Assembly (NCBI RefSeq): GCF_024979315.1
Contig: NZ_JANLCK010000003.1
Location: 434,001 to 498,000 of the forward strand
Length of the DNA stretch: 64,000 nt
Origin: Herbiconiux oxytropis
Lineage (GTDB): Bacteria > Actinomycetota > Actinomycetes > Actinomycetales > Microbacteriaceae
Direction of reading: 5' to 3'
Positions 40,753 through 58,690 of this stretch are shown here, piece by piece; position 1 is the stretch's first letter; the number at the start of each line of letters is the position of its first letter. Both the position numbers and the translations under genes were made by a program. Below the pieces are notes generated by a model, which made no database searches, was not told the origin of the DNA, and was given only the letters and a program-made list of their open reading frames with translations.

Positions 40753-40778
40753 AAGGCCTCCCGCGGGATGCCTTTTTT
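40753..40778 (+). terminator. Rho-independent terminator
   Basis: AAGGC-c-TCCC-GC-GGGA-t-GCCTT forms a 9-base-pair stem with one mismatch, followed by TTTT. It lies 90 bases beyond the DUF4304 stop. T-tract terminators are otherwise rare in this window. Confidence 0.75.
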
Positions 40779-40802
40779 GCTGCCTCGGGCCCCTTCGTGC
40801 GG

Positions 40803-40822
40803 GTGTATCACCGGTGATACAC
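40803..40822. promoter_or_regulatory. Perfect palindromic operator of the toxin-antitoxin pair
   Basis: The 20-base sequence GTGTATCACCGGTGATACAC is a perfect palindrome ending 7 bases before the antitoxin ATG. It overlaps a -10-like TACACT (40818-40823). This is the expected site for antitoxin or complex autorepression. Confidence 0.75.
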
Positions 40823-40829
40823 TCAGGGC

Positions 40830-41476: not shown

Positions 41477-41487
41477 CGAGGCGCTGC

Positions 41488-41877: not shown

Positions 41878-41989
41878 CGCATCCACCCCGTCCGGTCGTC
41901 CCGCTGACCCTATCCGACCCGTGGGCTCTGCGCGTCCACGACGACCGGTGCGGCTCTGCATGAGGGCGCACGAATCACGTCCCTGCAGC

Positions 41990-43111
41990 TCAGGCCTCGA
42001 CGAGGTCCAGCACTCTCGCCCAGGTGGCCTCCCAGATCGGCGCACGGGGATCGATCACGCTGAAGTGGTGGCCCGGGGCCTCAAGGAGTTCGGGCTGGCC
42101 GAGGGCGACCGACCGGGAGAGGCGCCGGTTCATCTCCACCAGGTCGGCCGAGTCGTCGGCGCCCTGCACGAGCAGCCACGGGGTCGACCGCTCGCGGAAC
42201 TCCCGCGGCGACGCACGGGCGTAGAGCTCCGGGATCTCGGAGGGTGAACCGCCCAGAGCGATCCCGACGGCGCCTTCGCCGAGAAACCGCTCGTGGGCGG
42301 CGACGAGGTCGACCACGCCGGCGAGCGAGACCGTGAGCTGCACGGTCTCCGGAGCGGCCTCCTCCGCGAGCTGCAGCGCCAGCTGGCCTCCCGCCGAGTG
42401 CCCGACGAGCACGACGGGCCCGCCGGAGGGGCCCGCCAGCTCGCGCGCCCGGGCCGATCCGGAACGCAGGTCGTCGAGGGTGGCCGCCCACCCGTGGAGG
42501 TCCGGCCGCCGGTACTCGAGGTTCCAGCTGCGCCAGCCGCGCCGGGCGACATCGACGGCGAGCTCGTCCATCAGCCCGGCCTGCCACCTCGAGCGGTAGA
42601 ACCCGCCGTGAATGAGGACCGCGAGAGGCGGTGCCCCGGATCCGGCGGCGTTCACCGGTTCACGCCACTCGCCGTACTGTTCGGCATCGGGCCCGTAATG
42701 CACGCGCCGGGCCGGGTGCAGGGCGGCAGCGACGGCCGAGTTCACCACGAAGGGGAGCCCATCCAGTCCCAGACCGCGCACGTGGTGCAGGAGCGCGGTC
42801 GAGGGGTCGCGGTCGCGCGCGCCCAGATCGAACCGGATGATCGGAGGCCGGGTTCGTCCCTGATCCGTCGAGAACGAATCCGCCTCCAGCTCGAGATCGA
42901 CCCCCTCGCCGGGCAGGACGAGCACGGCAGACGCCTCGGAGGTGGGCGCGGCGGCACGACGCAGCACGTCGGCGGGGGTCTCATCCGGCAGCAGCGTGAC
43001 CATCCTGAACCCCCACCCGCGCGAGGCGGTGGCCTCGGCGAGCACCTGTTCCAGGCGTGCCTCGTCGACGTCGAGCCCGCTCGACACGATCGCGGTGAGA
43101 AGACGGTTCAT
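41990..43111 (-). CDS. Alpha/beta hydrolase with an N-terminal extra domain
   Basis: A 373-residue protein. Residues about 150-373 are an alpha/beta hydrolase with the oxyanion motif LIHGGFYRSRW, nucleophile GHSAGGQLAL and catalytic histidine in EAPGHHFSVID. The HGGFYRSRW pattern resembles kynurenine formamidase-like enzymes. Residues 1 to about 130 form an additional, unrecognised domain (VLEQVLAEA-like helix, then VLVLPGEGVDLELEAD). It is the last gene of the 13-gene operon, its start overlapping the LLM gene stop by 4 bases. It probably cleaves an amide or ester intermediate of that pathway. Confidence 0.8.
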   Translation of the reverse strand: MNRLLTAIVSSGLDVDEARLEQVLAEATASRGWGFRMVTLLPDETPADVLRRAAAPTSEASAVLVLPGEGVDLELEADSFSTDQGRTRPPIIRFDLGARDRDPSTALLHHVRGLGLDGLPFVVNSAVAAALHPARRVHYGPDAEQYGEWREPVNAAGSGAPPLAVLIHGGFYRSRWQAGLMDELAVDVARRGWRSWNLEYRRPDLHGWAATLDDLRSGSARARELAGPSGGPVVLVGHSAGGQLALQLAEEAAPETVQLTVSLAGVVDLVAAHERFLGEGAVGIALGGSPSEIPELYARASPREFRERSTPWLLVQGADDSADLVEMNRRLSRSVALGQPELLEAPGHHFSVIDPRAPIWEATWARVLDLVEA

Positions 43112-44115
43112 CGGTCGAGCTTCAGCAGCGGCATCACGGCGGTGCCGATCAGGTCGATCCCGCCGGCGTCGGTGAGCCCTTGGGGTGTCCCGAAGTCCAC
43201 GCGGTCGGCCCCCGCATCGATCAGCGACTGCGCCTGCTCGGCGACGTGCTCGGGGGTGCCGGAGAAGGCGAAGAGGTCGAGCACGTCATCCGGGATCCGA
43301 TCGCCGGCCGCCTGATCATCTCCCTCGCCCACGAGGCGGCGCACCGACTCGAGCAGGTCGTCCGGGAGCTCGACGGTCGGATCGAGGTCGGCCACGGCGG
43401 CCAGGTACATCGCGACCTCGCGGCGGGCCGCTGATCGGGCGGCACGCCCGTCGCGATCGACCACGGTGACCGCCCCGAGCACGAGCTTCACATCCTGGGC
43501 GCTCCGACCCGCCTTCTGCGCGCCCACCCCGATCCGCTCGCGCATCACAGGGACCATCGCCGGGTTCGCCGTGCCGCCGACCTTGAGCTCGTCCGCGATC
43601 CGCCCTGCGAGGGCGGCTCCGAGCGGCCCCCAGGCGCCGATCAGCAGGGGTGGCCGCGCTCGCCTCACGGGGTACCGCAGGGCCACGCCCGGAGCGAGCG
43701 GATAGATCTCTCCCTCGAACCCGGCCCCTTCACCCGAGAGCAGAGCGTAGATGTGTCCGGCTGCTTCTCGCAGGTGCGCGACGGGCTTGGTCTGGCGGAG
43801 TCCGATCGCGTCGAGCCAGGTCCCCTTGGCAAGTCCCAGGTACGCCCGGCCGTCGCTCGCTGCGTCGAGCGCGGCGACCTGCCCGGCGATCTCGTACGGA
43901 TGCAGGGAGTACGGGTTCCAGCAGGCGGCGCCCAGCCTGACCCGGGATGTCGCCGCCGCCATCTCGAGGAGCGCGGCGATGGGCGGCTGGAACAGCAGGT
44001 CGCTGAACACGCTCACGACATCGATCCCGTGCCTCTCGGCGCCGGCGGCGAGCGGGCCGTAGGCTCCGGGCGCCTTGTCCGACTGGATGCCGAGCCCGAT
44101 CTCCGCGCGGCTCAC
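43108..44115 (-). CDS. LLM-class (luciferase-like, F420/FMN) oxidoreductase
   Basis: A 335-residue TIM-barrel flavin/F420 oxidoreductase. The family features are a MSRAEIGLGIQSD strand, the TSRVRLGAACWNPYSLHPYE active-site strand and a conserved LLIGAWGPLGAALAGRIADE near residue 160. These enzymes use F420 or FMN for hydride transfer or monooxygenation. The GTG start at 44115 overlaps the TIGR04076 stop. Other F420-type proteins occur about 15 kb upstream (59063, 59516), consistent with an F420-producing organism. Confidence 0.85.
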   Translation of the reverse strand: MSRAEIGLGIQSDKAPGAYGPLAAGAERHGIDVVSVFSDLLFQPPIAALLEMAAATSRVRLGAACWNPYSLHPYEIAGQVAALDAASDGRAYLGLAKGTWLDAIGLRQTKPVAHLREAAGHIYALLSGEGAGFEGEIYPLAPGVALRYPVRRARPPLLIGAWGPLGAALAGRIADELKVGGTANPAMVPVMRERIGVGAQKAGRSAQDVKLVLGAVTVVDRDGRAARSAARREVAMYLAAVADLDPTVELPDDLLESVRRLVGEGDDQAAGDRIPDDVLDLFAFSGTPEHVAEQAQSLIDAGADRVDFGTPQGLTDAGGIDLIGTAVMPLLKLDR

Positions 44116-44468
44116 GTGAGGTCTCCCGAGCGCATCGGGCAGAGCGCACCGCGTTCGATCCGCATGATCAGACGCTCCTCCGGGTCTGGACAGGCGACCA
44201 GGGAATCCCGTTCGAGCCAGTCGCCGTCCGGCAGCTTGCGCTGCTTGGCCGGGATCATCGGCAGCACGGCCTGCAGCGCGTAGAGGCAGAAATGCCCCGG
44301 AATCGTCAGCTGACTCGAGTTCACCACGTCGAACGAGTCGCCCACGTGCATGCCGCAGACCGATCGGCCCTCGATGCGGTCGACGACGACGGTGATGTCG
44401 TACAGCTCCATGTCGTCGCCGGCGTCGGCTTCACGCGAGTCGGCGTCCCCAACGGTCTCATCGGTCAT
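44112..44468 (-). CDS. TIGR04076-family protein
   Basis: A 118-residue protein. After a 20-residue acidic leader it matches TIGR04076: YDITVVVDRIEGRSVCGMHV, GDSFDVVN and the C-terminal CPDPEERLIMRIERG. A pair of cysteines (SVCGMHV and GHFCLYAL) is conserved and may bind metal or a cofactor. The family has no defined activity but often accompanies oxidoreductases in catabolic operons. Its start overlaps the dehydrogenase stop by 11 bases and its stop overlaps the LLM gene. Confidence 0.85.
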   Translation of the reverse strand: MTDETVGDADSREADAGDDMELYDITVVVDRIEGRSVCGMHVGDSFDVVNSSQLTIPGHFCLYALQAVLPMIPAKQRKLPDGDWLERDSLVACPDPEERLIMRIERGALCPMRSGDLT

Positions 44469-45492
44469 GATCTGCTCCTTCTGCGGCGACGGATGCGCCT
44501 CCGCGATCGAGTACCACGATGGTCTTGCCCCGGGTGCGGCGGGCCGCGAGGTCGTCGAGTGCGGCGCCTGCGTCGTCGAGGCCGACGACGCGATCGACGA
44601 GCGGGCGCACGCTTCCGGCCGTGACGAGGGCGAAGAGTGCGGCGTAGACCTCGCTCACCTCCGCCGGCCGCTCCCACGGATAGCGTGAACCCCAGGACAG
44701 GCCCACCAGATCGACGTTGCGCGCCATCAGCGAAGCGGGGTCGACCTGCGACGAGCCCCCGGCCGTGCCGACGGCCACGAGACGGCCCTCGAACGCCAGG
44801 CAATCGAGCGAAACCGCGGTCATCGGCCCGCCGACCGGGTCGATCACGGCGGCCACGCCCGCACCCCCGGTGGCCGCGCGCACGAGGTCGACGACGTCGG
44901 CGTCCCGGTAGTCGATGGCCAGATCGGCGCCCTGGGCGAGGCAGACGGCCGTCTTCTCCGGCCCGCCCGCCGTCGCGATGACGCGGAGCCCACGCGAGCG
45001 CGCGAGCTGGATGGTGGCGATCCCCACCCCACCCGCTCCGGCGTTGACCAGCACGGTCTCGCCGGGCTCGAGCCGAGCCCGCTCGAGGGCGAACCACGCC
45101 GTCTGGTAGGTCACCGGCAGCGCGGCGGCCGTCACAGCGTCGACGGTCGGGGGTCGCTCCACGGCGAGCGACGAGGCGATGACGACTTCGTCGCCGAGGG
45201 CTCCCTCCGGCAGCGCGGGGCAGGCCAGGACTCTCGTGCCCACCGCGTGCACCGAGCCCTCGGCCGCCTCGATCACCGTGCCGGCCACCTCGACGCCGGG
45301 CACGAACGGCGGAACGGGGACACCGGGGTAGTCGCCCCGGCACATCATGACGTCGAGGAAGTTGAGCCCGACCGCCTCGGAGCCGAGCCGGATCTGCCCT
45401 CGCTCGAGAGTTCCGCGCGTCCGTTCCGACACGCGGAGCACGTCGCCCGGCTCGCCGAACTCCACGACGACGGCGGAGCGGTACCGGCTCAC
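44458..45492 (-). CDS. MDR-superfamily NADPH:quinone oxidoreductase-like protein
   Basis: A 344-residue medium-chain dehydrogenase/reductase. The substrate domain (VVVEFGEPGDVLRVSERTRG, GLNFLDVMMCRGDYPGV) and the NADPH Rossmann motif NAGAGGVGIATIQLARSRG match the quinone oxidoreductase/enoyl reductase group. No zinc ligands are visible, so it is probably zinc-independent. GTG at 45492 overlaps the SnoaL-like stop by 4 bases. It probably reduces an unsaturated carbonyl intermediate, which is inference. Confidence 0.87.
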   Translation of the reverse strand: MSRYRSAVVVEFGEPGDVLRVSERTRGTLERGQIRLGSEAVGLNFLDVMMCRGDYPGVPVPPFVPGVEVAGTVIEAAEGSVHAVGTRVLACPALPEGALGDEVVIASSLAVERPPTVDAVTAAALPVTYQTAWFALERARLEPGETVLVNAGAGGVGIATIQLARSRGLRVIATAGGPEKTAVCLAQGADLAIDYRDADVVDLVRAATGGAGVAAVIDPVGGPMTAVSLDCLAFEGRLVAVGTAGGSSQVDPASLMARNVDLVGLSWGSRYPWERPAEVSEVYAALFALVTAGSVRPLVDRVVGLDDAGAALDDLAARRTRGKTIVVLDRGGASVAAEGADHDR

Positions 45493-45956
45493 ACCCGCTC
45501 TCCCGACCCCGGGCCCGACTCCGGACCGGGTTCCGGATCGGCCGTCTCGGCGACCTGCGAGGGCCGCGCCCACAGCTCGGAGTGGTGGTGCACGATGCGC
45601 CAGCCGTTCTCCGGATCCCGCAGCAGCACGTCGGTCACCCGCGAGACCTCGTCGCCGTCGACCCCCGTCTTCGACGCGACGAGCAGGTACCTGGCCACCG
45701 CGTGATCGCCCCACACGTCCACGCGCTCGGCCTCCACCCGGAGCGACGCCACCTGAGCCACGACCGACGGCGGCCGTTCGTCGCGGTAGGCGTCGAGCTC
45801 GTCCCGGCTGATCAGGCGCGGGAGAGGTGTCTCCCAGGTCGTGACGTCCGGTGCGAGATGTCGGTCGAACCGCTCACGATCCCGTGCCATGAACGCGTCG
45901 TACATGTCCCGGATCTCGTCGAGCACGACGCTCTCCGCCGTGGTGGGGGCACTCAT
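45489..45956 (-). CDS. SnoaL/DUF4440-like (NTF2 fold) protein
   Basis: A 155-residue protein with an NTF2-like cone fold: helix EIRDMYDAFMARDRERFDRH, strands around RVDVWGDHAVARYLLVASKT and a WRIVHHHSELW strand. The last 20 residues are a Pro/Glu/Gly-rich tail. Such proteins are ketosteroid-isomerase-like enzymes or binding proteins. It is translationally coupled to the genes on both sides (ATGA and GTGA overlaps). Confidence 0.83.
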   Translation of the reverse strand: MSAPTTAESVVLDEIRDMYDAFMARDRERFDRHLAPDVTTWETPLPRLISRDELDAYRDERPPSVVAQVASLRVEAERVDVWGDHAVARYLLVASKTGVDGDEVSRVTDVLLRDPENGWRIVHHHSELWARPSQVAETADPEPGPESGPGSGERV

Positions 45957-47242
45957 GCGATCACCAGTCTGTCGTCGCGCACCACATCGCCCGCCTGCAT
46001 GACCCACCGCAGGGTGCGGAGCGCGGAGATGTCCTCGAGCGGATCCGCGTCGACCGCGATCAGATCGGCGCGCTTGCCCACCTCGATCGTGCCGACGGCG
46101 TCGTCGATCCCGAGCCAGCGCGCGCAGTTGACGGTGCCGGCCCGGAGAGTGGCGGGTGCGCCGAGTCCGTTCTCGCTCATGTGCTCCATCTCGCGCACGA
46201 TCGCCGTGGTGCCCTCGAACGGCCAGAAGGGCGGCATGTCGCTGCCGACCATGATGGTGACCCCGGCCTCCATCGCCATCCGGAACGACTCGAGGTGCCG
46301 AGGCCCCGCCGACAGGGACCGCTCCTGCATCCACGCCGGAACACCGAGCTCGTCGAAGAACGATCCGCATCGGGTCACCACGAGGGTCGGCACCAGAGCG
46401 GTGCCCGCGGCCGCCATCGCCGCGGCCACCTCGGGGGTGAGCTCGTAGCCGTGCTCCACGCAGTCGAGCCCCAGCGCCACGGCCTCGGCGATGATCGGCG
46501 CAGGGCCGGCGTGCGCCGTGACCTTGCGCCCCCAGGCGTGAGCGGTCGAGATGACCGCCGACATCTCCTCGCGGGTGAGCTGCGGGGTGTCCATGCCTTC
46601 GTGGCGACCCGCGATGCCGCCGGAGATCATCACCTTGATCAGGTCGGCTCCCGCCTTGATCTGGCTGCGCACCCCCTGCGCGAAGCCCACGGCTCCGTCG
46701 CACTCGAGTGTGTCGCCGTTCTCGTGCCCGTGGCCGCCGGTGCACACGAGGGCCCGGCCGGCGGTGCGGATGTCGGGCCCGGGCACGAGGCCTCGCGCGA
46801 TCGCGTCGCGGAGCGCGAAGTCGACGTGGTCGCGCTCGGCGACGCAGCGCACGGTCGTGATGCCGGAGTGCAGTGCGCGGCGCGCCCCGTCGGCCATGTA
46901 GAGCGCGATCCCCGCGTCGTCGAGCGCGCTCACGGCGGCGCCGCGCTCGCCGGGGAGCGCGAGGGAGAAGTGGGTGTGCATGTTCATCAGGCCGGGTGCC
47001 AGATAGGCGCCGCCGAGATCCACCTCGACGGGCGCAACCGCCCCCGTGCCCGCCGAGACCGCTGCGGCGCGGCGCACGTCGTCCTCGGCGCCGACCGCCG
47101 CGATCACGCCGTCGCGCACCCACACCGCACCGGGCGTGGCCGTCTCGGCGACGGCGTCCACGATCGACAGCGAGTGCAGCAGCACGCTCGTCGGACTCGG
47201 CCCCGTTCCGCGGAACGCGGTGGAAGCGATGTCATCGGTCAT
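45953..47242 (-). CDS. Amidohydrolase, imidazolonepropionase/prolidase-like (lysine-carboxylate) type
   Basis: A 429-residue metal-dependent hydrolase. The HxH is in LMNMHTHFSL, the metal-bridging lysine in LIKVMISGG, histidines in VTAHAG and EHGYEL, and the aspartate in VGSDMPPF. This order is that of the carboxylated-lysine binuclear subgroup (prolidase/Xaa-Arg dipeptidase-like), which hydrolyses amides or lactams. ATG at 47242 has a GGAG ribosome-binding site. An ATG at 47257 lacks one. The gene overlaps the HyuB stop by 11 bases. Confidence 0.87.
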   Translation of the reverse strand: MTDDIASTAFRGTGPSPTSVLLHSLSIVDAVAETATPGAVWVRDGVIAAVGAEDDVRRAAAVSAGTGAVAPVEVDLGGAYLAPGLMNMHTHFSLALPGERGAAVSALDDAGIALYMADGARRALHSGITTVRCVAERDHVDFALRDAIARGLVPGPDIRTAGRALVCTGGHGHENGDTLECDGAVGFAQGVRSQIKAGADLIKVMISGGIAGRHEGMDTPQLTREEMSAVISTAHAWGRKVTAHAGPAPIIAEAVALGLDCVEHGYELTPEVAAAMAAAGTALVPTLVVTRCGSFFDELGVPAWMQERSLSAGPRHLESFRMAMEAGVTIMVGSDMPPFWPFEGTTAIVREMEHMSENGLGAPATLRAGTVNCARWLGIDDAVGTIEVGKRADLIAVDADPLEDISALRTLRWVMQAGDVVRDDRLVIA

Positions 47243-48917
47243 CGAGATCAACTCCATAGGTGTCGGATGCCGCGGCGGCGGAGACGATGCCCTCCGCCAC
47301 GTCCCGGCGGACGAGTTCCGGATCGCGTTCCGAGACGGGACCGTGCCCCGCTCCTCCCGCCGTGAGCAGGGTCACGCGGTCTCCTGCCGACACCGCGATC
47401 CGACGGGTGCTGAGCCGTCGCTCGCGGGCGGTGCCGGGGAAGGCGATCACCTGCGTCGGTTCGCTCTCCTGGCCGCCGTCGAGCGACCACGGCCTGGTGC
47501 GGGTCTTCTTGACCACCGAGAGGAACTCGCCGTTCGAGACGAAGCGGATGTCGCGCCTGATGCCCGGGCCCCCGCGGTGCTTTCCCGCCCCGGCCGAATC
47601 CGCGCGCACCTCGAGGCGTTCGAAGAGCATCCCGCTCTTGGCCTCGAGCACCTCGATGGGCGTGCTCCTGGCCACGGTCTGGCACAGGTGGTTGATCGGT
47701 CCGGCCCCGTCGTGGTGCGGGGTGCCGCCCCAGCCGATCGGGTCGTTGTTGCTGATGGCGAAGAACGCTCCGGTGTCCGGATGCGCGCCCACCATCATGA
47801 ATCCGGGCACGTCGCCGCCTGAGGACGCCCCGAGCCGATCCGGCATGCCCTGGGCGAGCGCCTTGTAGATGAGCTCGACGGCCAGGTTCCCCGTCCACTG
47901 CGTGAAGGTGGCCGCGGGGTACACCGCGTGGAAGAGCGATCCGGGTTCGGCCTTCACACGGAGCGGAGCCATGTGGCCCGCGTTCGTCTGCTCGAACGGC
48001 GTGGTGAGCGCCTTGAAGGCCACCCTGGCGCAGGCGATCGTGGCACCGAAGGGAAGGTTGACGGGCCCGCGCACCATCGGCGACGAACCCGCGAAGTCGA
48101 CGGTGAAGGTGCCGTCGGCCACCGTGACGGTGACCTCCAGCCGTACCGGTTCGTCGGTGATGCCGTCGTCGTCCATCCAGTCGACAGCCGTCCAGCTGCC
48201 CTGCGGCAGAGCCGCGATCGCGTCGAGCGACGCCTGTTCGCCGAGCTGCATGAAGCGCTCGATGCTCGCCTGCACGGTGCCGAGGCCGAATTTGGCGATG
48301 ACGTCGACGATGCGCCGCTGGCCGGTGCGCAGGCACGACACCTGCGCGTGCAGGTCGCCCAGCACCACGTCCGGCATGCGCGAGTTGAAGCGGATGAGCT
48401 CGTGCACGTCGTGCACGGGCTCACCGCGGGAGAAGACCTTGGTGCCCGGGAAGATGAGTCCCTCCTGGTGCATGTCGGTGGAGTCGAGCACGTAGCCCGG
48501 ATCCTTCGCGCCGAGGTCCATCCAGTGCGCCCGCACGCACACGAAGCCCACGAGCGTCTCCTCGTCGGGCAGGAAGACGGGAGAGAAGAGGGTCGCGTCG
48601 TAGGAGTGCGCCGCGTTCCAGTAGGGGTAGTTGAGCAGCACGACGTCGCCGGCCTCGAGGTTCTCCACCCCGACGTACTCGAGTCCCTTCTTCAGGGAGT
48701 GGTCGTTCGCACCCAGGAAGCGGGTGAGGCCCGGCGCCTCGGCCACGAGTCGCGCCCTCTCGTCGTAGATCGAGATGCCGAAGTCGAGCACCTCGTAGAT
48801 CACGGGATTGAACGCCGTGCGGATGAGGGTGCTGCGCATCTCGTCGGCGGCCGCGGCGAGGTAGCTCCGCACGACCTCGACGGTGGCGCCGTCGACGGCG
48901 GGCAGGCCCTCACTCAT
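47232..48917 (-). CDS. Hydantoinase/oxoprolinase B-type subunit (HyuB), copy 2
   Basis: A 561-residue HyuB-family protein, paralogous along its full length to the copy at 48910-50595. Conserved stretches include IRTAFNPVIYEVLDFGISIY, LLNYPYWNAAHSYDATLF, DSTDMHQEGLIFPGTKVFSR and ISNNDPIGWGGTP. Together with HyuA it forms the ATP-dependent hydrolases that open hydantoins, 5-oxoproline, lactams or N-carbamoyl compounds. Start ATG at 48917 overlaps the first copy by 8 bases. It may form a second enzyme with the shared HyuA, or an alternative complex. Confidence 0.9.
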   Translation of the reverse strand: MSEGLPAVDGATVEVVRSYLAAAADEMRSTLIRTAFNPVIYEVLDFGISIYDERARLVAEAPGLTRFLGANDHSLKKGLEYVGVENLEAGDVVLLNYPYWNAAHSYDATLFSPVFLPDEETLVGFVCVRAHWMDLGAKDPGYVLDSTDMHQEGLIFPGTKVFSRGEPVHDVHELIRFNSRMPDVVLGDLHAQVSCLRTGQRRIVDVIAKFGLGTVQASIERFMQLGEQASLDAIAALPQGSWTAVDWMDDDGITDEPVRLEVTVTVADGTFTVDFAGSSPMVRGPVNLPFGATIACARVAFKALTTPFEQTNAGHMAPLRVKAEPGSLFHAVYPAATFTQWTGNLAVELIYKALAQGMPDRLGASSGGDVPGFMMVGAHPDTGAFFAISNNDPIGWGGTPHHDGAGPINHLCQTVARSTPIEVLEAKSGMLFERLEVRADSAGAGKHRGGPGIRRDIRFVSNGEFLSVVKKTRTRPWSLDGGQESEPTQVIAFPGTARERRLSTRRIAVSAGDRVTLLTAGGAGHGPVSERDPELVRRDVAEGIVSAAAASDTYGVDLDDR

Positions 48918-50595: not shown

Positions 50596-52643
50596 GCCGC
50601 CTCCTCCAGAGTGATCAGCAGGTAGCCGTGCTCGTCGACCTCGACGTGCTGGCCGCTGTGCACGACCGTCGTGGAGGTGCCCTCGTCGACGAGCGCGGGC
50701 CCGTCGAACCGGTCGCCGGGCGAGAGGCGACTGCGATCGTAGACGGCGAACTCCGCGGCGCTCCGGGTGCCGAAGTCGAACGCAGTCCGACGGCCCGTGA
50801 GGGCACGGGCGGGATCGCCGTCGCCCTCGGGGAGCACCGGGAGCCCTGGTCGCACCGTGCGGCCGATGCCGCGCACCCTGGCCGTCAGGATCTGCACCCT
50901 GCTCTCCATGGAGTGGCCGTAGCGGGCTTCGTGCAGCTCGTTGAACGACCGCCGGATCGCCTCCGGGTCCAGGTCTTCCCCGATCGGCACCGTGAGCGTG
51001 TGCTCCTGCCCCAGGTAGCGCAGCTCGAGCTGGTTCTCGAGGTGGGCCACGTCGTCGGCCACACCCTGCTCGCGGAGCGATCCGAGTGCTTCCCCACCGA
51101 TCTCGTCGAGCTCGCGCCGGAGGTCGTCGAGATCGACCTCGTCGAGCACCTCCATCCTGGTGCGCGCGAAGTCGTTCACGATGTCGGCGCTCAGCATGCC
51201 CCAGGCCGAGAACCCCGAGGGGGCGAACGGCACGATCACCTCGCGCACGCCCATCTCGCGGGCGAGGAGGGGAGCCACGAGGGGGCCGGCTCCGCCGAAG
51301 GCGAGCAGCGAGAACACCCGGGGGTCGTGACCGCGCTCGACCGTGATCTGCCGCACGGCCCCGACGGTCTTGGCGAGCATCACGTCGAAGATGCCGGCGG
51401 CGGCCGCCTCGACGCTCAGCCCGAGCGGCTCGGCGATCGTGGCGCGCACCGCCTCGACGGCGGCCTCGGCCTGGAGGGGCATCGATCCGGCGAGGAAGCT
51501 CTCGGGATCCACGTAGCCGAGGCAGACCGACGCATCCGTGACCGTGGGGCGGGTGCCGCCCCGGCCGTAGCACACCGGCCCGGGCACGGCGCTCGCACTC
51601 TCGGGCCCCACCTTCAGCAGGCCTCGGTCGATCCAGGCGATCGATCCGCCGCCCGCTCCGATGGTGCGGATGTCGTAGGAGGGCATGAGGAGCGGGAAGT
51701 GCTCGAGCTCGGCCTCGTGGGTCACGACCGCCGTGCCGTCCTCGATCACGCAGGCGTCGAGCGAGGTGCCGCCGATGTCGAAGGTCAGCACGTTCGGCCG
51801 CTCGAGCACGTCGGCGAGGTAGCCGCCGCCCACGATCCCGCCCGCCGGCCCGGAGAGCACGGTGTGGGTGGGCGACTGCTTGGCCGTGGCCGAGGTCATC
51901 GACCCTCCGCCCGAACGCATGATGAGGAACCGCCCGTCGAAGCCCTTCGCCGCGAGGCCCTTCTCCAGTTCGTCGACGTAGCGCTCGAAGATGGGCCGGA
52001 TGTAGGCCTCGAGCACGGTCGTCGACGTGCGCTCGTACTCCCGATGCTCCCGCACGATGTCGGTCGAGACCGAGACGGTCACCTGCGGGTACCACTCCCG
52101 CAGCAGCTCGGCCGTGCGCTGCTCGTGGGAGGGGTCGAGGTAGGAGTGCAGGTAGCAGACCGCGAGCGAGATGACGCCCTCGTCCTCCACGAGCTGCCTG
52201 GCCACCTCGCGGAGGCCCACCTCGTCGAGGGGTTCGAGCTCTTCGCCCCTGTGGTTCAGGCGGCCGCGCACCCCGGCGGTGTGCCGGCGCTTGACGAGGC
52301 TCTCGGGGCGCTCGTACTGGAAGTCGTACATCCGGTCGTCCGGCACGTTCCCCCGGCCGAGCAGGAAGATGTCGCGCAGGCCGTAGTTGGTGATGATCCC
52401 GGTCGCGCCCCCGCGCCGCTCGAGCACGGCGTTGAGGCCGAGCGTGGTGCCGTGGATGAACAGCTCGACCTCGCCGAGGTCGGTGCCGAGGGCCTCGACC
52501 GCCGCCAGCACGCCCTCCCAGGGGCGGGCCGGCGTGGTGGAGGCCTTGCGGAAGCGCACGACCCCGGTGCGGGTGTCCAGTTCCATGGCGTCGACGAACG
52601 TGCCGCCGATGTCGACGGCGAGACGGAGTGGGGCAGGGGACAC
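50592..52643 (-). CDS. Hydantoinase/oxoprolinase A-type subunit (HyuA)
   Basis: A 683-residue subunit with the ASKHA ATPase fold. The phosphate motif is LAVDIGGTFVDAM at the N-terminus, the second is TFDIGGTSLDACVIED and the adenosine-binding segment is VLSGPAGGIVGG. It phosphorylates or activates the amide carbonyl in complex with HyuB. The GTG at 52643 is preferred, being 9 bases after an AAAGGA ribosome-binding site. A GTG at 52661 overlapping the ABC gene stop is the alternative. It is followed by two HyuB genes in the same operon. Confidence 0.9.
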   Translation of the reverse strand: MSPAPLRLAVDIGGTFVDAMELDTRTGVVRFRKASTTPARPWEGVLAAVEALGTDLGEVELFIHGTTLGLNAVLERRGGATGIITNYGLRDIFLLGRGNVPDDRMYDFQYERPESLVKRRHTAGVRGRLNHRGEELEPLDEVGLREVARQLVEDEGVISLAVCYLHSYLDPSHEQRTAELLREWYPQVTVSVSTDIVREHREYERTSTTVLEAYIRPIFERYVDELEKGLAAKGFDGRFLIMRSGGGSMTSATAKQSPTHTVLSGPAGGIVGGGYLADVLERPNVLTFDIGGTSLDACVIEDGTAVVTHEAELEHFPLLMPSYDIRTIGAGGGSIAWIDRGLLKVGPESASAVPGPVCYGRGGTRPTVTDASVCLGYVDPESFLAGSMPLQAEAAVEAVRATIAEPLGLSVEAAAAGIFDVMLAKTVGAVRQITVERGHDPRVFSLLAFGGAGPLVAPLLAREMGVREVIVPFAPSGFSAWGMLSADIVNDFARTRMEVLDEVDLDDLRRELDEIGGEALGSLREQGVADDVAHLENQLELRYLGQEHTLTVPIGEDLDPEAIRRSFNELHEARYGHSMESRVQILTARVRGIGRTVRPGLPVLPEGDGDPARALTGRRTAFDFGTRSAAEFAVYDRSRLSPGDRFDGPALVDEGTSTTVVHSGQHVEVDEHGYLLITLEEAA

Positions 52644-52657
52644 GGAGGATCGTCCTT

Positions 52658-54280
52658 TCACGGGGTGACGGCTCGGCCGCCGAGGCGGGGCGCCGCGGCG
52701 AGGAGCCGGCGGGTGTACGGATGCTGAGGGGAGTCGAACACCTCGGCGGTGGGGCCCTCCTCCACCACCTCGCCGCGGTAGATCACGACCACGCGGTCGC
52801 AGAAGGAGCGCACGGTCGCGAGATCGTGCGAGACGAAGAGCTGACCGCGCTCGCCGTCGGCGCCGAGCTCGGTGATGAGGTCGAGGATCTGCGCCTGCAC
52901 GGTCACGTCGAGAGCGGATGTCGGCTCGTCGAACACGATCAGCTCGGGTTCGCAGACGAGGGCTCTGGCGATGCCCACCCGCTGCGCCTGCCCGCCGGAC
53001 AGCTCGTGCGGCAGCCGGGTGAGGAAGGTCTCGTCGAGCCCTGTGCGCCGGAGCACCTCGGTGGCGCGCTGCTCGCGCCGGGGCCGGTCGACACCCTGGG
53101 CGAGCAGCGTCTCGGTGACCGCGTCGAGCACGGTGCGCCGGGGGTCGAGGGCACCGAGCGGATCCTGGAACACCATCTGCACGGAACGGCGGAGCGCCCG
53201 CCGTCGGGAACCCCGCAGCGCGGCGAGGTCGTGCCCGGCCACCTCGACCCGGCCGCTGGAGGGCTTCACGAGCCCCACGAGCATCCGCGCCAGAGTCGTC
53301 TTGCCCGAGCCGCTCTCGCCCACGATGCCGACGGTCTCGCCGCGGTGGACGGTGAGGTCGACACCGCGCAGCGCGTGGTGCCCACCGCTGCCGATGCGGC
53401 CGCGGTAGCGCACATGGGCGTCGCGCACCTCGGCCACGACGCCGCCGGGCCCGTCCTCAGGCCTGACCGGGCCGGCGGCACGGCGCGTGAGCGGGCGGTC
53501 GATGTCGGGCACGGCGGCGAGAAGAGTGCGGGTGTACTCCGAGCGCGGGCTCTCGAGCACCTGGGCGGTCGTCCCCTCCTCGACCACCTCTCCGGCGCGC
53601 AGCACCACGATGCGGTCGCACACCTCCACCGCGGCCGCGATGTCGTGCGAGATCAGCAGCACTCCGCGGCCCTGCTCGACGGCGAGCGAGCGCAGCAGCG
53701 CGAGCGCGTCGCGGGTGAGGGTGACGTCGAGCCCCGTGGTCGGCTCGTCGGCGAGCAGGAGCCCGGGATCGCAGGCGAGGCAGAGCGCGATCATCACGCG
53801 CTGCGCCATGCCGCCTGAGAGCTCGTGCGGGTAGGAGCCGAGCACGCGGCGCGTGTCGGTGATGCCCACGGCCTCGAGCAGCCGTACCGACTCCGCGGTC
53901 GCCTCCTGGCCGGTGGAGCCCTGATGCAGTCTCAGCCGGTCGGCGAGCTGCTTCTGCACGGTGCGCAGCGGTTCGAGCGCCGCGCGGGGGTTCTGGAAGC
54001 ACAGGGCGACTCCGTGGCCGCGATGCTCCAGCAGCTGCGCCTCCGACATCCCGAGCACGTCCTGGTCGCGGAAGAGCACGTCGCCGCCGGTCTGGGCGCG
54101 GGCGGGCAGCATCCCGATCGTGGCGCGGGCCAGCATGCTCTTTCCGCCGCCGCTCTCACCCACGAGGCCCACCACCTCGCCGGCCCGCACGGTGAGGTCC
54201 ACGCCGCGAAGCGCCTCGACTGCCGCTCCGGTGGTGGGGATCGACACGGTCAGGCCGCGCACGTCGAGCAGCACGTTCAT
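52658..54280 (-). CDS. Peptide-type ABC importer ATPase, fused DppD-DppF type
   Basis: A 540-residue protein with two complete nucleotide-binding domains. The first has Walker A GESGGGKSM, signature LSGGMAQRV and an LLLADEPTTGLDV Walker B. The second has GESGSGKTT, LSGGQAQRV and LIVFDEPTSALDV. Each half carries the peptide/nickel transporter C-terminal ending. It powers the importer together with the two permeases that follow. The start has an AGGAGG ribosome-binding site 5 bases upstream. A GTGA-type overlap links it to the HyuA gene. Confidence 0.94.
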   Translation of the reverse strand: MNVLLDVRGLTVSIPTTGAAVEALRGVDLTVRAGEVVGLVGESGGGKSMLARATIGMLPARAQTGGDVLFRDQDVLGMSEAQLLEHRGHGVALCFQNPRAALEPLRTVQKQLADRLRLHQGSTGQEATAESVRLLEAVGITDTRRVLGSYPHELSGGMAQRVMIALCLACDPGLLLADEPTTGLDVTLTRDALALLRSLAVEQGRGVLLISHDIAAAVEVCDRIVVLRAGEVVEEGTTAQVLESPRSEYTRTLLAAVPDIDRPLTRRAAGPVRPEDGPGGVVAEVRDAHVRYRGRIGSGGHHALRGVDLTVHRGETVGIVGESGSGKTTLARMLVGLVKPSSGRVEVAGHDLAALRGSRRRALRRSVQMVFQDPLGALDPRRTVLDAVTETLLAQGVDRPRREQRATEVLRRTGLDETFLTRLPHELSGGQAQRVGIARALVCEPELIVFDEPTSALDVTVQAQILDLITELGADGERGQLFVSHDLATVRSFCDRVVVIYRGEVVEEGPTAEVFDSPQHPYTRRLLAAAPRLGGRAVTP

Positions 54281-55158
54281 CGGGTCCTCCTGCGGGTCTC
54301 GCGTTCCTGGAGGCCCTCACCCAGGAGGCTGAACCCCAGCACGCACACGACGAGTGCGAGGCCGGGCGGCACCGAGGTCCAGAGCCGGCCGGCGACGATG
54401 TCGCTCGTCCCCTGGCTGATCATCGCGCCCCACTCGGGCTGCGGCACGGGCACGCCGAGGCCGAGGAACGAGAGCCCGGCGAGGGCGAGCATCGCCCAGC
54501 CCACGTTGAGCGGCGCCACGATGCGCACCGGCGCGAGGCTGTTCGGGATGACGTGCCGCAGCAGCACGCGGGCGCTCACGAGTCCCGAGGTGCGCGCGGC
54601 GTCGACGTAGGCGAGCTCCCGCACGGTGCGCACCTCGGCACGCACGAGTCGGGCGTAGGAGGGGACCGAGACGATCGCCACCACGATCGTGAGGTTCACG
54701 ATGCCGGGGCCGAGCAGGGCGGCGACCGCGAGGGCGAGGATGAAGGTGGGGAAGGCCTGGAGGATCTCGAGCAGCCGCATCACGATGGCGTCGAGGGCCC
54801 CGCCGACGTAGCCGGACACGGCTCCGATGAGGGATCCGATCACCACGGCGACCGCCACCGACACCACAGCCACTCCGAGGTCGACCCTCCCGGCGTGCAG
54901 CAGCCGGCTGAACACGTCCATGCCGTTCGCGTCCGTGCCGAGCCAGTGATCCGGCCCCGGTGCCTGACGGATGGCGGTGGAGTCGATCTCGATCGGGCCC
55001 CAGGGGGTCAGGAGCGGCGCGAAGACGCTCGCGAGCACGACGAGGCCCACGAGGGCCGCACCCGTCCAGATCATCCCCTCGCCGAAGCCGCGCGAGGCGC
55101 GGGGAGTTCGGCTGCGGGGGAGCCGGCGGTTCACGCCGATCGGTCCGACGCTGACCAT
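54277..55158 (-). CDS. Peptide-type ABC importer permease (DppC family)
   Basis: A 293-residue inner-membrane permease of the OppC/DppC type. An N-terminal span (MIWTGAALVGLVVLASVFAP) is followed by PDHWLGTDANGMDVFSRLLH. The EAA loop reads RTSGLVSARVLLRHVIPNSL. About six spans are visible. It forms the channel with the DppB-type permease and shares overlaps of 4 bases and 1 base with its neighbours. Confidence 0.93.
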   Translation of the reverse strand: MVSVGPIGVNRRLPRSRTPRASRGFGEGMIWTGAALVGLVVLASVFAPLLTPWGPIEIDSTAIRQAPGPDHWLGTDANGMDVFSRLLHAGRVDLGVAVVSVAVAVVIGSLIGAVSGYVGGALDAIVMRLLEILQAFPTFILALAVAALLGPGIVNLTIVVAIVSVPSYARLVRAEVRTVRELAYVDAARTSGLVSARVLLRHVIPNSLAPVRIVAPLNVGWAMLALAGLSFLGLGVPVPQPEWGAMISQGTSDIVAGRLWTSVPPGLALVVCVLGFSLLGEGLQERETRRRTR

Positions 55159-56168
55159 CAGAGCCTCACTCTCGGGTCGAGGGCGGCATGGATGACATCG
55201 GCCACGAGGTAGGCGATGGCGTAGACGAGGGCGATGATGACCACACCGGCCTGCACCACGGGGTAGTCGCGGTAGAGCAGTCCGCGCAGCAGCCACTGGC
55301 CCATGCCCTGCCAGGAGAAGACGTACTCCACGAGCACGACACCGCCGAGCACGTTGCCGAGCACGAGGGCCGCGAGAGTGGGGATGCGGGAGACGGTGCC
55401 GCGCAGCAGGTAGCCCGTCACGAGCGGGCGGCCGCTGATCCCGTGCGCCCGCGCCGTGGCCCAAGGCGCGGCGGCACGGATGTCGATGGCGGCCGACCGC
55501 ACGCTGCGCAGCAGCGACGCCGTCACTCCGACCGCGATGGTGAGCACGGGCAGCACGAGGTAGAGCAGGGCGGAACCGAGGGCGGGCCAGTTGCCCGTGA
55601 GGAGTGCGTCGACCGCCTCCGCTCCCGTGATGGGGGTGGGGCTCAGCCCCCGGCCGATCCGGCCGCTCGGGCCGGGGAACCAGCCGAGCTGCTGGTAGCC
55701 GATGACGATGAGGATCAGTCCGAGCCAGAACTCCGGCATCGCCGTGCCGACGAGCGACGTGATGCGGCTCGTGTGGTCGAGGGGGCTGTTGACCCGGAGG
55801 GCCGAGACGATGCCGATCACGATCGACACCACGACGGCGAGTCCGACGCCGAGGAAGACGAGTTCGAGCGTCGGCGCCAGGCGGAAGGCGAGCTCGGTGG
55901 AGACGGGCACACCGGTCTGGATCGAGGTGCCGAAGTCGCCCACGAAGAAGCCGCCGAGGTAGTCGAGGAACTGGCTCCAGAGCGGCTGGTCGAGCCCGAG
56001 TCGCTGCCGGATGGCCTCGAGGTCCTCCGCCGTGGTGTTCGGCCCCACGAAGGCCTGCACCGGATCGCCGGGCAGCACGCGCACGAGGAGGAAGGTCAGC
56101 ACGATCACGCCGAGCAGCACCGGCACGACGAGCGCGATCCTGATGGCGATGTACCGGGCGATTCGCAT
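55158..56168 (-). CDS. Peptide-type ABC importer permease (DppB family)
   Basis: A 336-residue permease of the OppB/DppB type. TM1 is IALVVPVLLGVIVLTFLLVR, then LPGDPVQAFVGPNTTAEDLE, the periplasmic loop signature of the family. The EAA loop contains AHGISGRPLVTGYLLRGTVS. About six spans are visible. It pairs with the DppC-type permease (TGATG overlap). The 117-base gap on its upstream side holds direct repeats and a hairpin. Confidence 0.93.
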   Translation of the reverse strand: MRIARYIAIRIALVVPVLLGVIVLTFLLVRVLPGDPVQAFVGPNTTAEDLEAIRQRLGLDQPLWSQFLDYLGGFFVGDFGTSIQTGVPVSTELAFRLAPTLELVFLGVGLAVVVSIVIGIVSALRVNSPLDHTSRITSLVGTAMPEFWLGLILIVIGYQQLGWFPGPSGRIGRGLSPTPITGAEAVDALLTGNWPALGSALLYLVLPVLTIAVGVTASLLRSVRSAAIDIRAAAPWATARAHGISGRPLVTGYLLRGTVSRIPTLAALVLGNVLGGVVLVEYVFSWQGMGQWLLRGLLYRDYPVVQAGVVIIALVYAIAYLVADVIHAALDPRVRL

Positions 56169-56207
56169 GCTTCTCTCTCGGTGTGGAGCGGGCGGGGCTT
56201 CGGGCGC

Positions 56208-56260
56208 GGGCGGCTGGGCGCCGGGCGGCCGATGCCGGGCGGCTGGGCGCCGGGCGGCCG
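56208..56260. repeat. Two tandem copies of a 24-base GC-rich direct repeat
   Basis: GGGCGGCTGGGCGCCGGGCG, extended by GCCG, occurs at 56208-56231 and again at 56237-56260, separated by 5 bases. The repeats fill the gap between the substrate-binding gene and the first permease gene. Confidence 0.8.
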
Positions 56261-56280
56261 CGGAGGAGGGCCGCCCGGCG
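56248..56280 (-). terminator. 12-base-pair intergenic hairpin after the substrate-binding protein gene
   Basis: CGCCGGGCGGCC (56248-56259) pairs perfectly with GGCCGCCCGGCG (56269-56280) around a 9-base loop. It starts 5 bases after the SBP stop on the (-) strand. No T-tract follows. Such hairpins usually protect the upstream mRNA or attenuate downstream expression, so that more binding protein than permease is made. Confidence 0.65.
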
Positions 56281-56285
56281 CGTGA

Positions 56286-57905
56286 TCAGTCGATCGTGAG
56301 GTACTTCATGCGCAGCAGGCCGTCGACCGGCTGCACGAAGCCCGACACGGTGTCGCGCACCGGGAGGTTGTAGTTCGGCTGCGCCAACGGGATCACCGGC
56401 ACGTCGGTGGCGAACTGCTTCTGCACCTCGGCCCACAGCGCCTCGCGCTCGGCGGGGTCGGTGAGGGTGTGCGAGGCCTCGACATCGGCATCGACCGTGG
56501 CGTTGGAGTAGTTCGCGTAATTGAGGTACGCGCCCGTCGTCCAGCCGTTCATGAGGTACTCGACGTCGTTGACCCACTGCTGGCCGGAGGCGATCTGCAT
56601 GGCAAGATCCTTCGCGTCGCGGCGTGCGCCGAGCGCAGCGGGGTCGAGCGGGGTGGGGGTGACCGTGATCCCCACCTCGGCGAGGGCGTCCTGCACGAGG
56701 ATCGCGATCTGCTCCTGCTCGTCGCTCTCGGCCTGGTAGGCGAGGTCCACCGAGAGGTCGCTCACTCCGGCCTGCGCGAGCAGCGCCTTCGCCTGGTCGA
56801 CGTCCTGGTCGTAGGGGAAGCCGTCCTCGCTGTAGCCCGGCATGTCGATCGGCACGATGCTGAGCGGCCGACGGGCGTCGCCGCCGTAGACGGTCGAGAT
56901 GATCTCGTCGTAGGGCATCGCGTACGCGACCGCCTGGCGCACGAGCGGGTCGTCGAACGGTGCGACCGCCGTGTCGAGGGGGATGTAGATCATCTCGTTG
57001 GAGGGGGCGGAGATGATCTCCACTCCCGCCGTGCCCTCGAGGTCGGCGATCTGCTGACGGCCGAGGCCGAGAGCGATGTCGACGTCGCCGTTCTGCAGCA
57101 GCACGCTCTCGGCGGCGGGGTCGGAGACGACCGTGAGCCTGATGGTGTCGGTCAGGGGGCCGTCTTCGGCCGGGTAGTCCTTGTTCGCCTTGAGCACGAT
57201 CTCCTGGCCGGGGGTGAACTCCTCGACGTTGTAGAGACCACCGTCGCTGGGGTTCTGCGCCGCCCAGTCCTGCGCCCACGGGTCATCGGCCGTGGCGTGC
57301 TCCTTCATCAGCACCGAGTCGTAGACGAAGAGGCTGATGGCCTGGATCTGAGGGGTCAGAGCGCTCGGGTACGCCTGGTCGAAGGTCACGGTGCGCTCGT
57401 CGACGACCTGGATCTGCTCGGGGTCGGTGAGGCCGATCAGCGAGTAGACCCCCGCCACGTTGGCCTGGGCGGCGAACGCCCTGTCCTTCGACCACTTGAC
57501 GTCGTCGGCGGTGATGGGGTTGCCGCTCGGGAACGTCGCGTCCTCGCGCAGGGTGAGGGTCCAGAGCTTGCCGTCCTCCGAGGTGAACGACTCGGCCCAC
57601 GCCGGCAGGATGTTCTCGGTGTCGAGGATCTGGCCGCCGGCGACGTCGGTCACGCCGTAGTCGGTGAGGTAGGGGTAGACGTTCTTGAACAGCGCGAGCG
57701 CGACCGGATCGAACGCCACGAAGTCCTGGTCCCAGCTCCCGGGGTAGGAGGGCACCGCGATGCGGAGCTCGGATGTCGCCGACTCGTCCGGTGCGGTCTG
57801 GCCGGCCACGCAGCCGGTGAGGCCGACGATCGTCGTGGTGAGGACGGCCCCCGCCACGACGAGTCTGCGGAACGACTTCGATGTCACTTGCGATGGGAAA
57901 TCCAC
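56286..57905 (-). CDS. Peptide-type ABC importer substrate-binding lipoprotein
   Basis: A 539-residue lipoprotein of the SBP_bac_5 (DppA/OppA) family. A signal peptide ends at GLTGC (cysteine near residue 32). The mature protein has the family features VYSLIGLTDPEQIQ and LVRQAVAYAMPYDEIISTVY, with the domain II hinge near the end. It captures the ligand outside the membrane. The GTG start has a GGAGG ribosome-binding site. It is the first gene of the operon, with an operator-like site at 57983-57997 upstream. Relatives bind peptides, opines, nickel or glycosides, so the ligand is open. Confidence 0.92.
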   Translation of the reverse strand: MDFPSQVTSKSFRRLVVAGAVLTTTIVGLTGCVAGQTAPDESATSELRIAVPSYPGSWDQDFVAFDPVALALFKNVYPYLTDYGVTDVAGGQILDTENILPAWAESFTSEDGKLWTLTLREDATFPSGNPITADDVKWSKDRAFAAQANVAGVYSLIGLTDPEQIQVVDERTVTFDQAYPSALTPQIQAISLFVYDSVLMKEHATADDPWAQDWAAQNPSDGGLYNVEEFTPGQEIVLKANKDYPAEDGPLTDTIRLTVVSDPAAESVLLQNGDVDIALGLGRQQIADLEGTAGVEIISAPSNEMIYIPLDTAVAPFDDPLVRQAVAYAMPYDEIISTVYGGDARRPLSIVPIDMPGYSEDGFPYDQDVDQAKALLAQAGVSDLSVDLAYQAESDEQEQIAILVQDALAEVGITVTPTPLDPAALGARRDAKDLAMQIASGQQWVNDVEYLMNGWTTGAYLNYANYSNATVDADVEASHTLTDPAEREALWAEVQKQFATDVPVIPLAQPNYNLPVRDTVSGFVQPVDGLLRMKYLTID

Positions 57906-57982
57906 GGGTCCTCCACGGTGTCCTGATGCACGGTAAACGTCTGATGAAACAGGCCTCGCGACGGAGTAGGGCCTTCAGATGT

Positions 57983-57997
57983 TTTACCGCACTAAAC
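57983..57997. promoter_or_regulatory. TTTA-type operator-like motif upstream of the importer operon
   Basis: TTTACCGCACTAAAC lies 78 bases before the SBP start. A very similar TTTACCCGCACTAAAC occurs in front of the regulator gene (58675-58690). Half-sites CGGTAAAC (57931-57938) and TTTAACATGATCGTAAA (58013-58029) flank it. It is a candidate binding site for the XRE-cupin regulator. Confidence 0.6.
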
Positions 57998-58674: not shown

Positions 58675-58690
58675 TTTACCCGCACTAAAC
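58675..58690. promoter_or_regulatory. TTTA-type operator-like motif upstream of the regulator gene
   Basis: TTTACCCGCACTAAAC begins 27 bases before the regulator start and matches the site at 57983-57997 except for one extra C. This points to autoregulation. Confidence 0.6.

What the first reader, a model, noticed from the sequence alone, without database searches (positions are those of the whole stretch)
41990..57905. Thirteen-gene operon joining a peptide-type importer, HyuA with two HyuB subunits and an unusual set of redox/hydrolase enzymes
Thirteen (-) strand genes run from the substrate-binding protein to the alpha/beta hydrolase. Apart from one 117-base gap and a short space at HyuA, they are joined by 1- to 11-base overlaps. 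The combination of importer, ATP-dependent HyuA/HyuB, carboxylated-lysine amidohydrolase, SnoaL-like protein, quinone-oxidoreductase-like protein, TIGR04076 protein, LLM oxidoreductase and HGG-type hydrolase is not one I recognise. It suggests one pathway for uptake and opening of a cyclic amide or imide followed by oxidation. The overlaps are read from sequence. The pathway is inference.
Basis: partly seen in the sequence, partly recalled or inferred. Interest (0 to 1): 0.7.

Follow-up and report, generated by a model that had tools for sequence, protein, structure and literature searches.

The report
Conserved operon opening cyclic amide compounds
Thirteen bacterial genes that travel together probably import a peptide-like compound and cut its amide bonds, using an unusual ATP-driven ring-opening enzyme with two similar subunits and an uncharacterised protein pair that may use cofactor F420.

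Summary
Thirteen minus-strand genes run from 57905 to 41990, joined by ten overlaps of 1-11 bases, a 117-base gap and a 14-base gap. The block has two modules. One is an importer plus an ATP-dependent hydrolase of one HyuA and two HyuB; both HyuB keep the metal-site motif. The other is amidohydrolase-TIGR04076-LLM, which also occurs without Hyu. TIGR04076 lies directly 5' of LLM in 25 of 25 loci that have it. The terminal hydrolase resembles kynurenine formamidase in predicted fold, though not uniquely; tryptophan/kynurenine genes lie near it in 9 of 12 loci and in 0 of 20 loci without it. HyuA (8 of 32 loci) and a DUF885 peptidase (15 of 32) never share a locus. Best reading: inducible uptake and hydrolysis of a lactam- or peptide-like compound linked to kynurenine metabolism, with a probable F420 redox step. 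"Hydantoin" and "oxidation" are not shown. Substrate unknown.

The parts
58040..58648 (-). XRE-cupin transcriptional regulator, likely local regulator of the block
   Evidence: HTH_3 and Cupin_2; relative at 45% identity or more in 9 of 32 loci, window included, and in 5 of 8 Hyu loci, window included
58675..58689 (-). candidate operator before the regulator gene (TTTAGTGCGG core with one extra G)
   Evidence: 2 mismatches to the searched core, sequence
57982..57996 (-). candidate operator before the importer gene (TTTAGTGCGGTAAAA)
   Evidence: one of only two places with up to 2 mismatches in the 4.13 Mb genome; the reversed-pattern control also gave 1 place. No consistent GTT..AAC palindrome in relatives
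56286..57905 (-). solute-binding protein, family 5 (peptide type), probably a lipoprotein
   Evidence: SBP_bac_5 E 2.4e-73; LTGC lipobox-like motif read from the translation
55158..56168 (-). permease 1 (BPD_transp_1, DppB-like)
54277..55158 (-). permease 2 (BPD_transp_1, DppC-like), ATG at 55158, 1-base overlap
   Evidence: start read from sequence
52658..54280 (-). fused double ATPase of the importer
   Evidence: two ABC_tran and two oligo_HPY stretches
50592..52643 (-). HyuA (ATP-binding alpha subunit)
   Evidence: Pfam; NCBIfam best model CapA, 511.6 bits, below its 1000-bit cut-off; motifs DIGGTFVD, DIGGT, SAVPGP read from the translation
48910..50595 (-). HyuB1 (metal-site beta subunit)
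   Evidence: Hydantoinase_B E 3.1e-153; D40, H99, D102, H132 motif read from the alignment
47232..48917 (-). HyuB2, second beta subunit, 71.6% identical to HyuB1
45953..47242 (-). carboxylated-lysine-type amidohydrolase related to prolidases and carboxypeptidases
   Evidence: HxH (94, 96), K208, H249, H269, D340 invariant in 26 rows, numbered from ATG 47257
45489..45956 (-). SnoaL-like protein
44458..45492 (-). quinone-oxidoreductase-like MDR enzyme (PIG3-like, below cut-off)
44112..44468 (-). TIGR04076 protein, constant upstream neighbour of LLM
   Evidence: 68.3 bits against cut-off 33; directly 5' of LLM in 25 of 25 loci; no solved relative by sequence, no PDB fold match at E 0.001
43108..44115 (-). 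luciferase-like oxidoreductase, probably F420-dependent
41990..43111 (-). alpha/beta hydrolase with HGG motif, kynurenine-formamidase-like, with an extra N-terminal domain (about 1-133)

Best explanation
The block is an inducible catabolic operon, probably under the adjacent XRE-cupin regulator. The family-5 importer brings in a small peptide-like compound with a lactam or otherwise resistant amide. HyuA activates the amide with ATP, and metal-site HyuB subunits (two conserved paralogues, alpha-beta-beta) hydrolyse it. The prolidase-type amidohydrolase cuts a second amide bond. The terminal HGG hydrolase removes a formyl or acyl group as kynurenine formamidase does, linking the product to tryptophan/kynurenine catabolism. 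TIGR04076 and LLM act together in an F420-linked hydride transfer; SnoaL and the MDR enzyme adjust the intermediate. Shown here: gene order, its conservation, linkages and intact active-site motifs. Inferred: regulation, every substrate and every reaction. The identity of the compound is open; a tryptophan-containing cyclic dipeptide or an oxidised-tryptophan lactam fits best.
For: Gene order kept in L027, L029 and L035 and mostly in L038. Kynurenine-pathway genes near 9 of 12 loci with the terminal hydrolase, 0 of 20 without. In L029 the block is followed by a divergent LysR gene and then kynureninase, a FAD monooxygenase and tryptophan dioxygenase. In L027 a 29%-identical paralogue of the terminal hydrolase overlaps a kynureninase gene by 4 bases. 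Foldseek ranks kynurenine formamidase (4e15) second for the terminal hydrolase. HyuA in 8 and DUF885 in 15 of 32 loci, never both, as if they did alternative amide-cutting jobs beside the same amidohydrolase. Amidohydrolase relatives in the PDB include an Xaa-Pro dipeptidase, arginine carboxypeptidases and ochratoxinase. LLM: six best solved relatives are methylenetetrahydromethanopterin reductases, three of them named F420-dependent in the listing. F420 ligase found in 23 of 24 tested genomes with TIGR04076-LLM and in 4 of 6 tested genomes without LLM; baseline 120 of 199 in the window's family. TIGR04076 found in 4 of 197 class genomes, all four of which hold the amidohydrolase.
Against: No substrate is shown. 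The window has no tryptophan dioxygenase or kynureninase near; the own copies lie on another contig. 3 of 12 loci with the terminal hydrolase (window, L035, L076) have no kynurenine gene in view. The terminal hydrolase's best fold match is a lipase, many esterases score about as well, and no formamidase was listed by sequence at E 0.001. Eight loci (L037, L040, L042, L048, L050, L079, L087, L088) instead carry imino-acid-oxidation-like genes, one of them (L048) a Hyu locus, so the core is not tied to tryptophan alone. One TIGR04076-LLM genome (L041) showed no F420 ligase. The F420 comparison mixes families. Fisher tests ignore relatedness (four Sphaerisporangium loci, several Microbacterium loci).
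Confidence: 0.42

Rival explanations
1. A proline/hydroxyproline peptide (or cyclic dipeptide) pathway: importer, HyuABB or DUF885, prolidase-type amidohydrolase, then imino-acid oxidation or F420-linked reduction of a pyrroline ring by TIGR04076-LLM.
For: Eight of 32 loci carry a DAO gene with a SoxA-like or DHDPS-family gene near the amidohydrolase; an S9 peptidase gene in L037, L040 and L050 and an M24 peptidase gene in L039 lie there too. F420 enzymes of the luciferase-like type reduce pyrroline imines in 4-alkyl-proline biosynthesis (PMC8498797, passages).
Against: None of the 12 loci with the terminal hydrolase, this window included, carries those genes. The hydroxyproline assignment rests on recalled knowledge; NCBIfam did not name it.
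Confidence: 0.25
2. Opening of an indole-derived lactam (oxindole type) made from tryptophan or indoleacetate, as for 2-oxoindoleacetyl-CoA lactamases of the Hyd branch.
For: [quoted passage not shown] tryptophan genes lie near relatives.
Against: No CoA ligase or indole hydroxylase was recognised among the 13 genes; no direct comparison with the indoleacetate enzymes was made.
Confidence: 0.15
3. HyuABB is an ATP-dependent carboxylase of an aryl ketone such as kynurenine, like acetophenone carboxylase.
For: Kynurenine is an aryl ketone (recalled chemistry); HyuA matches the ApcC model at E 1.2e-94.
Against: No gamma-type subunit was recognised among the 13 genes; the CapA lactamase model and the PDB chains named N-methylhydantoinase and 5-oxoprolinase score higher than acetophenone carboxylase; the make-up here is one alpha and two beta, whereas Apc has two related alpha-type subunits.
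Confidence: 0.05
4. The 13 genes are only neighbours of unrelated function.
For: Modules separate in relatives.
Against: Overlaps, same order in several genera, no internal promoter or terminator found.
Confidence: 0.05

Closest known systems
Caprolactamase CapAB (Pseudomonas jessenii; PMC8453981)
   Same: HyuA and HyuB families; phosphate motifs in HyuA; D-H-D-H metal tetrad by motif in both HyuB
   Different: two beta paralogues; HyuA reaches about half and HyuB about a fifth of the equivalog cut-off; different operon; first Gly of GxxPGP is Ser here
ATP-dependent hydantoinase/5-oxoprolinase (Hyd)
   Same: alpha/beta ATP-dependent amidohydrolase families, no gamma subunit recognised
   Different: published Hyd clusters are said to hold only hydA and hydB (PMC5214803); here A-B-B in 6 of 8 loci
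Acetophenone carboxylase
   Same: distant HyuA/HyuB homology; an extra paralogous subunit
   Different: its paralogous pair is alpha-type, not beta; no gamma or epsilon recognised here
Prolidase-type amidohydrolases (2qs8, Cc2672 3mtw, NF051886)
   Same: conserved HxH, Lys, His, His, Asp residues of the amidohydrolase metal site
   Different: 222 bits against an equivalog cut-off of 500
Kynurenine formamidase, alpha/beta type (4e15)
   Same: alpha/beta-hydrolase fold match, HGG motif, kynurenine gene neighbourhood in relatives
   Different: 18% identity; extra N-terminal domain; other esterases score about as well
F420-dependent luciferase-like hydride transferases (Mer)
   Same: best solved relatives; F420 ligase gene in the host genome
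   Different: preceded by TIGR04076 wherever that gene is present; substrate unknown

Membership tests
ATP-dependent hydantoinase/lactamase (Hyd) | HyuA with the three ATP motifs | tested here: met
   DIGGTFVD and DIGGT present; adenosine motif is SAVPGP, differing in its first residue from GxxPGP
ATP-dependent hydantoinase/lactamase (Hyd) | HyuB Asp-His-Asp-His metal tetrad | tested here: met
   by motif position in all 14 HyuB rows of these loci, not by alignment to CapB itself; residues from PMC8453981
ATP-dependent hydantoinase/lactamase (Hyd) | only two genes, hydA and hydB | tested here: not met
   two HyuB in 6 of 8 loci; L048 and L083 have one
ATP-dependent hydantoinase/lactamase (Hyd) | ATP-dependent ring hydrolysis | not testable with these tools
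   needs enzyme assay
Caprolactamase (NF050156/NF050157) | score over equivalog cut-off | tested here: not met
   HyuA 511.6, HyuB1 206.1, HyuB2 191 bits against 1000
Acetophenone carboxylase | score over equivalog cut-offs | tested here: not met
   HyuA 317.9 (ApcC) and 208.5 (ApcA), HyuB1 77.4 (ApcD) bits against 1500, 1250, 1500
Xaa-Pro dipeptidase NF051886 | score over equivalog cut-off | tested here: not met
   222 against 500
Kynurenine formamidase (alpha/beta type) | HGG motif, GxSxG nucleophile elbow and a conserved His | tested here: met
   H168 G169 G170, G237 S239 G241 and H349 invariant in 12 rows. These motifs are shared with other esterases
Kynurenine formamidase (alpha/beta type) | hydrolysis of N-formylkynurenine | not testable with these tools
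   needs enzyme assay
F420-dependent LLM oxidoreductase | closest to F420 enzymes, host has F420 ligase | tested here: met
   one of 24 genomes with the pair (L041) gave no ligase match. The NCBIfam F420 models matched were all below their cut-offs
F420-dependent LLM oxidoreductase | F420 binding | not testable with these tools
   needs purified protein
TIGR04076 | score over curated cut-off | tested here: met
   68.3 against 33 bits

The most novel reading that the evidence does not exclude
A dedicated catabolic system for cyclic dipeptides or oxidised-tryptophan lactams, built on an alpha-beta-beta ATP-dependent lactamase in which two diverged metal-site subunits share one ATPase subunit, together with a new two-component F420 oxidoreductase made of LLM and its constant small partner TIGR04076.
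Probability: 0.18. Interest if true: 0.7.

Novelty: new variant of a known kind. Interest (0 to 1): 0.48.

Why it matters
Little is known of how diketopiperazines are degraded (start of the abstract and passages of PMC3852281), and I found no assigned role for TIGR04076: a full-text search of 5.39 million open papers found the name in one (listing only). The neighbourhood data give testable roles for TIGR04076 (LLM partner), for HyuABB (counterpart of DUF885) and for the terminal hydrolase (formamidase-like).

Tried and rejected
Hydantoin use: nothing found points to hydantoins in particular. Acetophenone-carboxylase reading: disfavoured. A conserved operator: only two places match in the genome, but the reversed-pattern control also gave one place, and a GTT..AAC palindrome scan found no consistent site upstream of the genes tested in relatives (it did not score the window's own sites either). 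TIGR04076 fold: AlphaFold model with mean pLDDT 89.7, yet no PDB match at E 0.001 and no relative by sequence up to E 1. The N-terminal domain of the terminal hydrolase aligned over 116 columns with type II dehydroquinase, but weakly (hhalign probability 18%, E 0.0014 for one pair; control with TIGR04076 E 0.35). Paper searches: hydantoinase with kynurenine and gene cluster, 0 papers; hydantoinase with oxindole, indole-3-acetic acid and degradation, 0 papers; diketopiperazine or cyclic dipeptide hydrolase and related words, 23 papers, 20 listed, none about such a gene by title. Indoleacetate lactamases were not compared by tree.

Rows dropped before counting: of the 25 loci, seven were left out (L043-L047, L049, L051: amidohydrolases at 47% identity or less, or a fragment). 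Of the 15 regions, L086 (same identities as L039) and L075 (3 kb contig) were left out. G066 was counted once, as L028. L038 was not among the 31 genomes. Presence thresholds were set by hand. Most loci are 20-21 kb, so absence means absence within that stretch.
Full report
OBSERVATION. The window is G000:C23:434001-498000 of a 4.13 Mb genome in 32 contigs. In order, the overlaps are 1, 4, 4, 8, 11, 4, 4, 11, 4 and 4 bases; the two gaps are 117 bases (after the binding-protein gene) and 14 bases (before HyuA). Three starts were checked in the sequence. No promoter-like or terminator-like site lies inside the block. An XRE-cupin regulator gene lies directly upstream on the same strand (58040-58648), and the sequence before it resembles the sequence before the importer gene. 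Only these two places match the core with up to 2 mismatches in the whole genome; the reversed control pattern matched once, so the argument rests on their position rather than on rarity.

CONSERVATION. A genome scan with the amidohydrolase gave 25 loci. The block recurs in L027 (Herbiconiux daphne), L029 (Nocardioides) and L035 (Dactylosporangium, with an IS605-type transposase gene on the other strand between HyuB2 and the amidohydrolase). In L038 it recurs without SnoaL and MDR genes and with an opposite-strand monooxygenase gene before the terminal hydrolase. The binding-protein gene is cut by the locus end in L027, L029 and L038 and lies outside L035. Identities to the window are 84-94% for 10 of 13 L027 proteins (58-75% for SnoaL, MDR and terminal hydrolase) and fall to 43% (terminal hydrolase in L035). 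Amidohydrolase orthologues are rare: 8 of 394 class genomes and 10 of 398 family genomes at E 1e-90, own genome included. Such patchiness suggests horizontal spread (inference).

MODULES. I compared 32 loci, the window included. HyuA is in 8 (window, L027, L029, L035, L038, L048, L077, L083). DUF885 (Pfam, for representatives) is in 15, never with HyuA (Fisher 0.003, relatedness ignored). TIGR04076 is in 25, each time followed by an LLM gene on the same strand with 0-211 bases between the aligned parts. The own genome has a further TIGR04076-TIGR04076-LLM run elsewhere (L056). In a sample of 197 class genomes TIGR04076 was found in four, all of which hold the amidohydrolase. Leucobacter (L048) has importer-HyuA-HyuB-amidohydrolase-SnoaL but neither TIGR04076 nor LLM, and no F420 ligase was found in its genome; G712 (L088) is alike in lacking the pair and the ligase. 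Against this, L041 has the pair but no F420 ligase was found. Over the 31 genomes the ligase was found in 23 of 24 with TIGR04076-LLM, 1 of 1 with LLM alone (L076) and 4 of 6 with neither; the baseline in the window's family is 120 of 199.

HyuABB. HyuB1 and HyuB2 are 71.6% identical. Both occur in 6 of 8 Hyu loci; the single HyuB of L048 and L083 groups with B1 of the window, L027 and L029 (97/99 support). B1 and B2 rows cluster by position more than shuffled labels do, but a single origin of each is not firmly supported (B2 on one side in 23% of bootstrap trees, B1 in 0%, since the single copies fall inside it). All 14 rows keep the Asp, His-x-x-Asp and His motif (window HyuB1 D40, H99, D102, H132) that corresponds by position to the CapB metal ligands, where all four alanine mutants lost activity (PMC8453981, passages). 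PMC5214803 (passages) states that Hyd clusters have only hydA and hydB; the extra beta gene is the departure here.

LINKS TO SUBSTRATE. The terminal hydrolase occurs in 12 loci; tryptophan dioxygenase, kynureninase or the FAD monooxygenase is in view in 9 (L027, L028, L029, L030, L031, L032, L036, L038, L084) and in 0 of 20 others (Fisher 8e-6; four Sphaerisporangium loci are relatives). In L027 the kynureninase gene lies about 5 kb beyond the block, on the other strand. L029 has importer, HyuABB, amidohydrolase, SnoaL, MDR, TIGR04076, LLM, hydrolase, then a divergent LysR gene, kynureninase, monooxygenase and tryptophan dioxygenase. The FAD monooxygenase is closest to VioC and below the cut-off of each of the 25 models listed, so 'kynurenine monooxygenase' is inference. 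Eight other loci carry a DAO gene with a SoxA-like or DHDPS-family gene, none with the hydrolase (Fisher 0.014). I read these as imino-acid oxidation from recalled knowledge of hydroxyproline operons. So the amidohydrolase core seems to serve different end products. The window falls in the group with the terminal hydrolase, although its own dioxygenase and kynureninase genes are on contig C12.

MECHANISM. Import, ATP-driven lactam opening by HyuABB, amide cutting by the amidohydrolase, deacylation by the terminal hydrolase, and an F420-linked hydride transfer by LLM with TIGR04076 make the most economical reading. Each catalytic step is inferred from family membership and intact motifs. The order of steps is not known. 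F420 luciferase-like enzymes act on cyclic imines among other substrates (PMC8498797, passages).

NOVELTY. A new variant of ATP-dependent lactamase operons. What is unusual: the alpha-beta-beta gene set, the fixed TIGR04076-LLM pair and the alternation of Hyu with DUF885. It is not a new class of system on present evidence.

Noticed in passing
window 40830-41473, plus strand: Two small genes just beyond the operon end, the second reading like a PIN-domain (VapC-type) protein; possible toxin-antitoxin pair, judged by eye from the translation, no family search made.
   Followed up: no
window 34950-42000: tRNA-Gln (34950-35022) followed by about 6-7 kb of lower G+C (0.59-0.65 against about 0.70) up to the operon end; looks like an island boundary.
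   Followed up: no
window 59063-60001, minus strand: F420H2-dependent quinone-reductase-family and PNPOx-family genes a little upstream of the regulator.
   Followed up: no
window 41990-43111, residues about 1-133: The terminal hydrolase has an N-terminal domain whose predicted topology resembles type II dehydroquinase, with only a weak profile match.
   Followed up: partly
L056:8281-11509: Own tryptophan operon: dioxygenase, a 349-residue amidohydrolase-like protein (by eye) without a Pfam match at 0.001 or NCBIfam match at 1e-10 where a formamidase might be expected, then kynureninase.
   Followed up: partly
L056:16332-19180: Second cluster with two TIGR04076 genes and an LLM next to an acyl-CoA-dehydrogenase-like gene (the last name by eye).
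   Followed up: no
L028 and L042: Records titled Acidobacteria bacterium and Planococcus carry loci that look like those of Microbacteriaceae; three L028 proteins give the same identities as those of G066, a genome of the window's own family. Possibly mislabelled records.
   Followed up: no
G000: Six matches to the HyuA family in this one 4.1 Mb genome, one of them partial.
   Followed up: no
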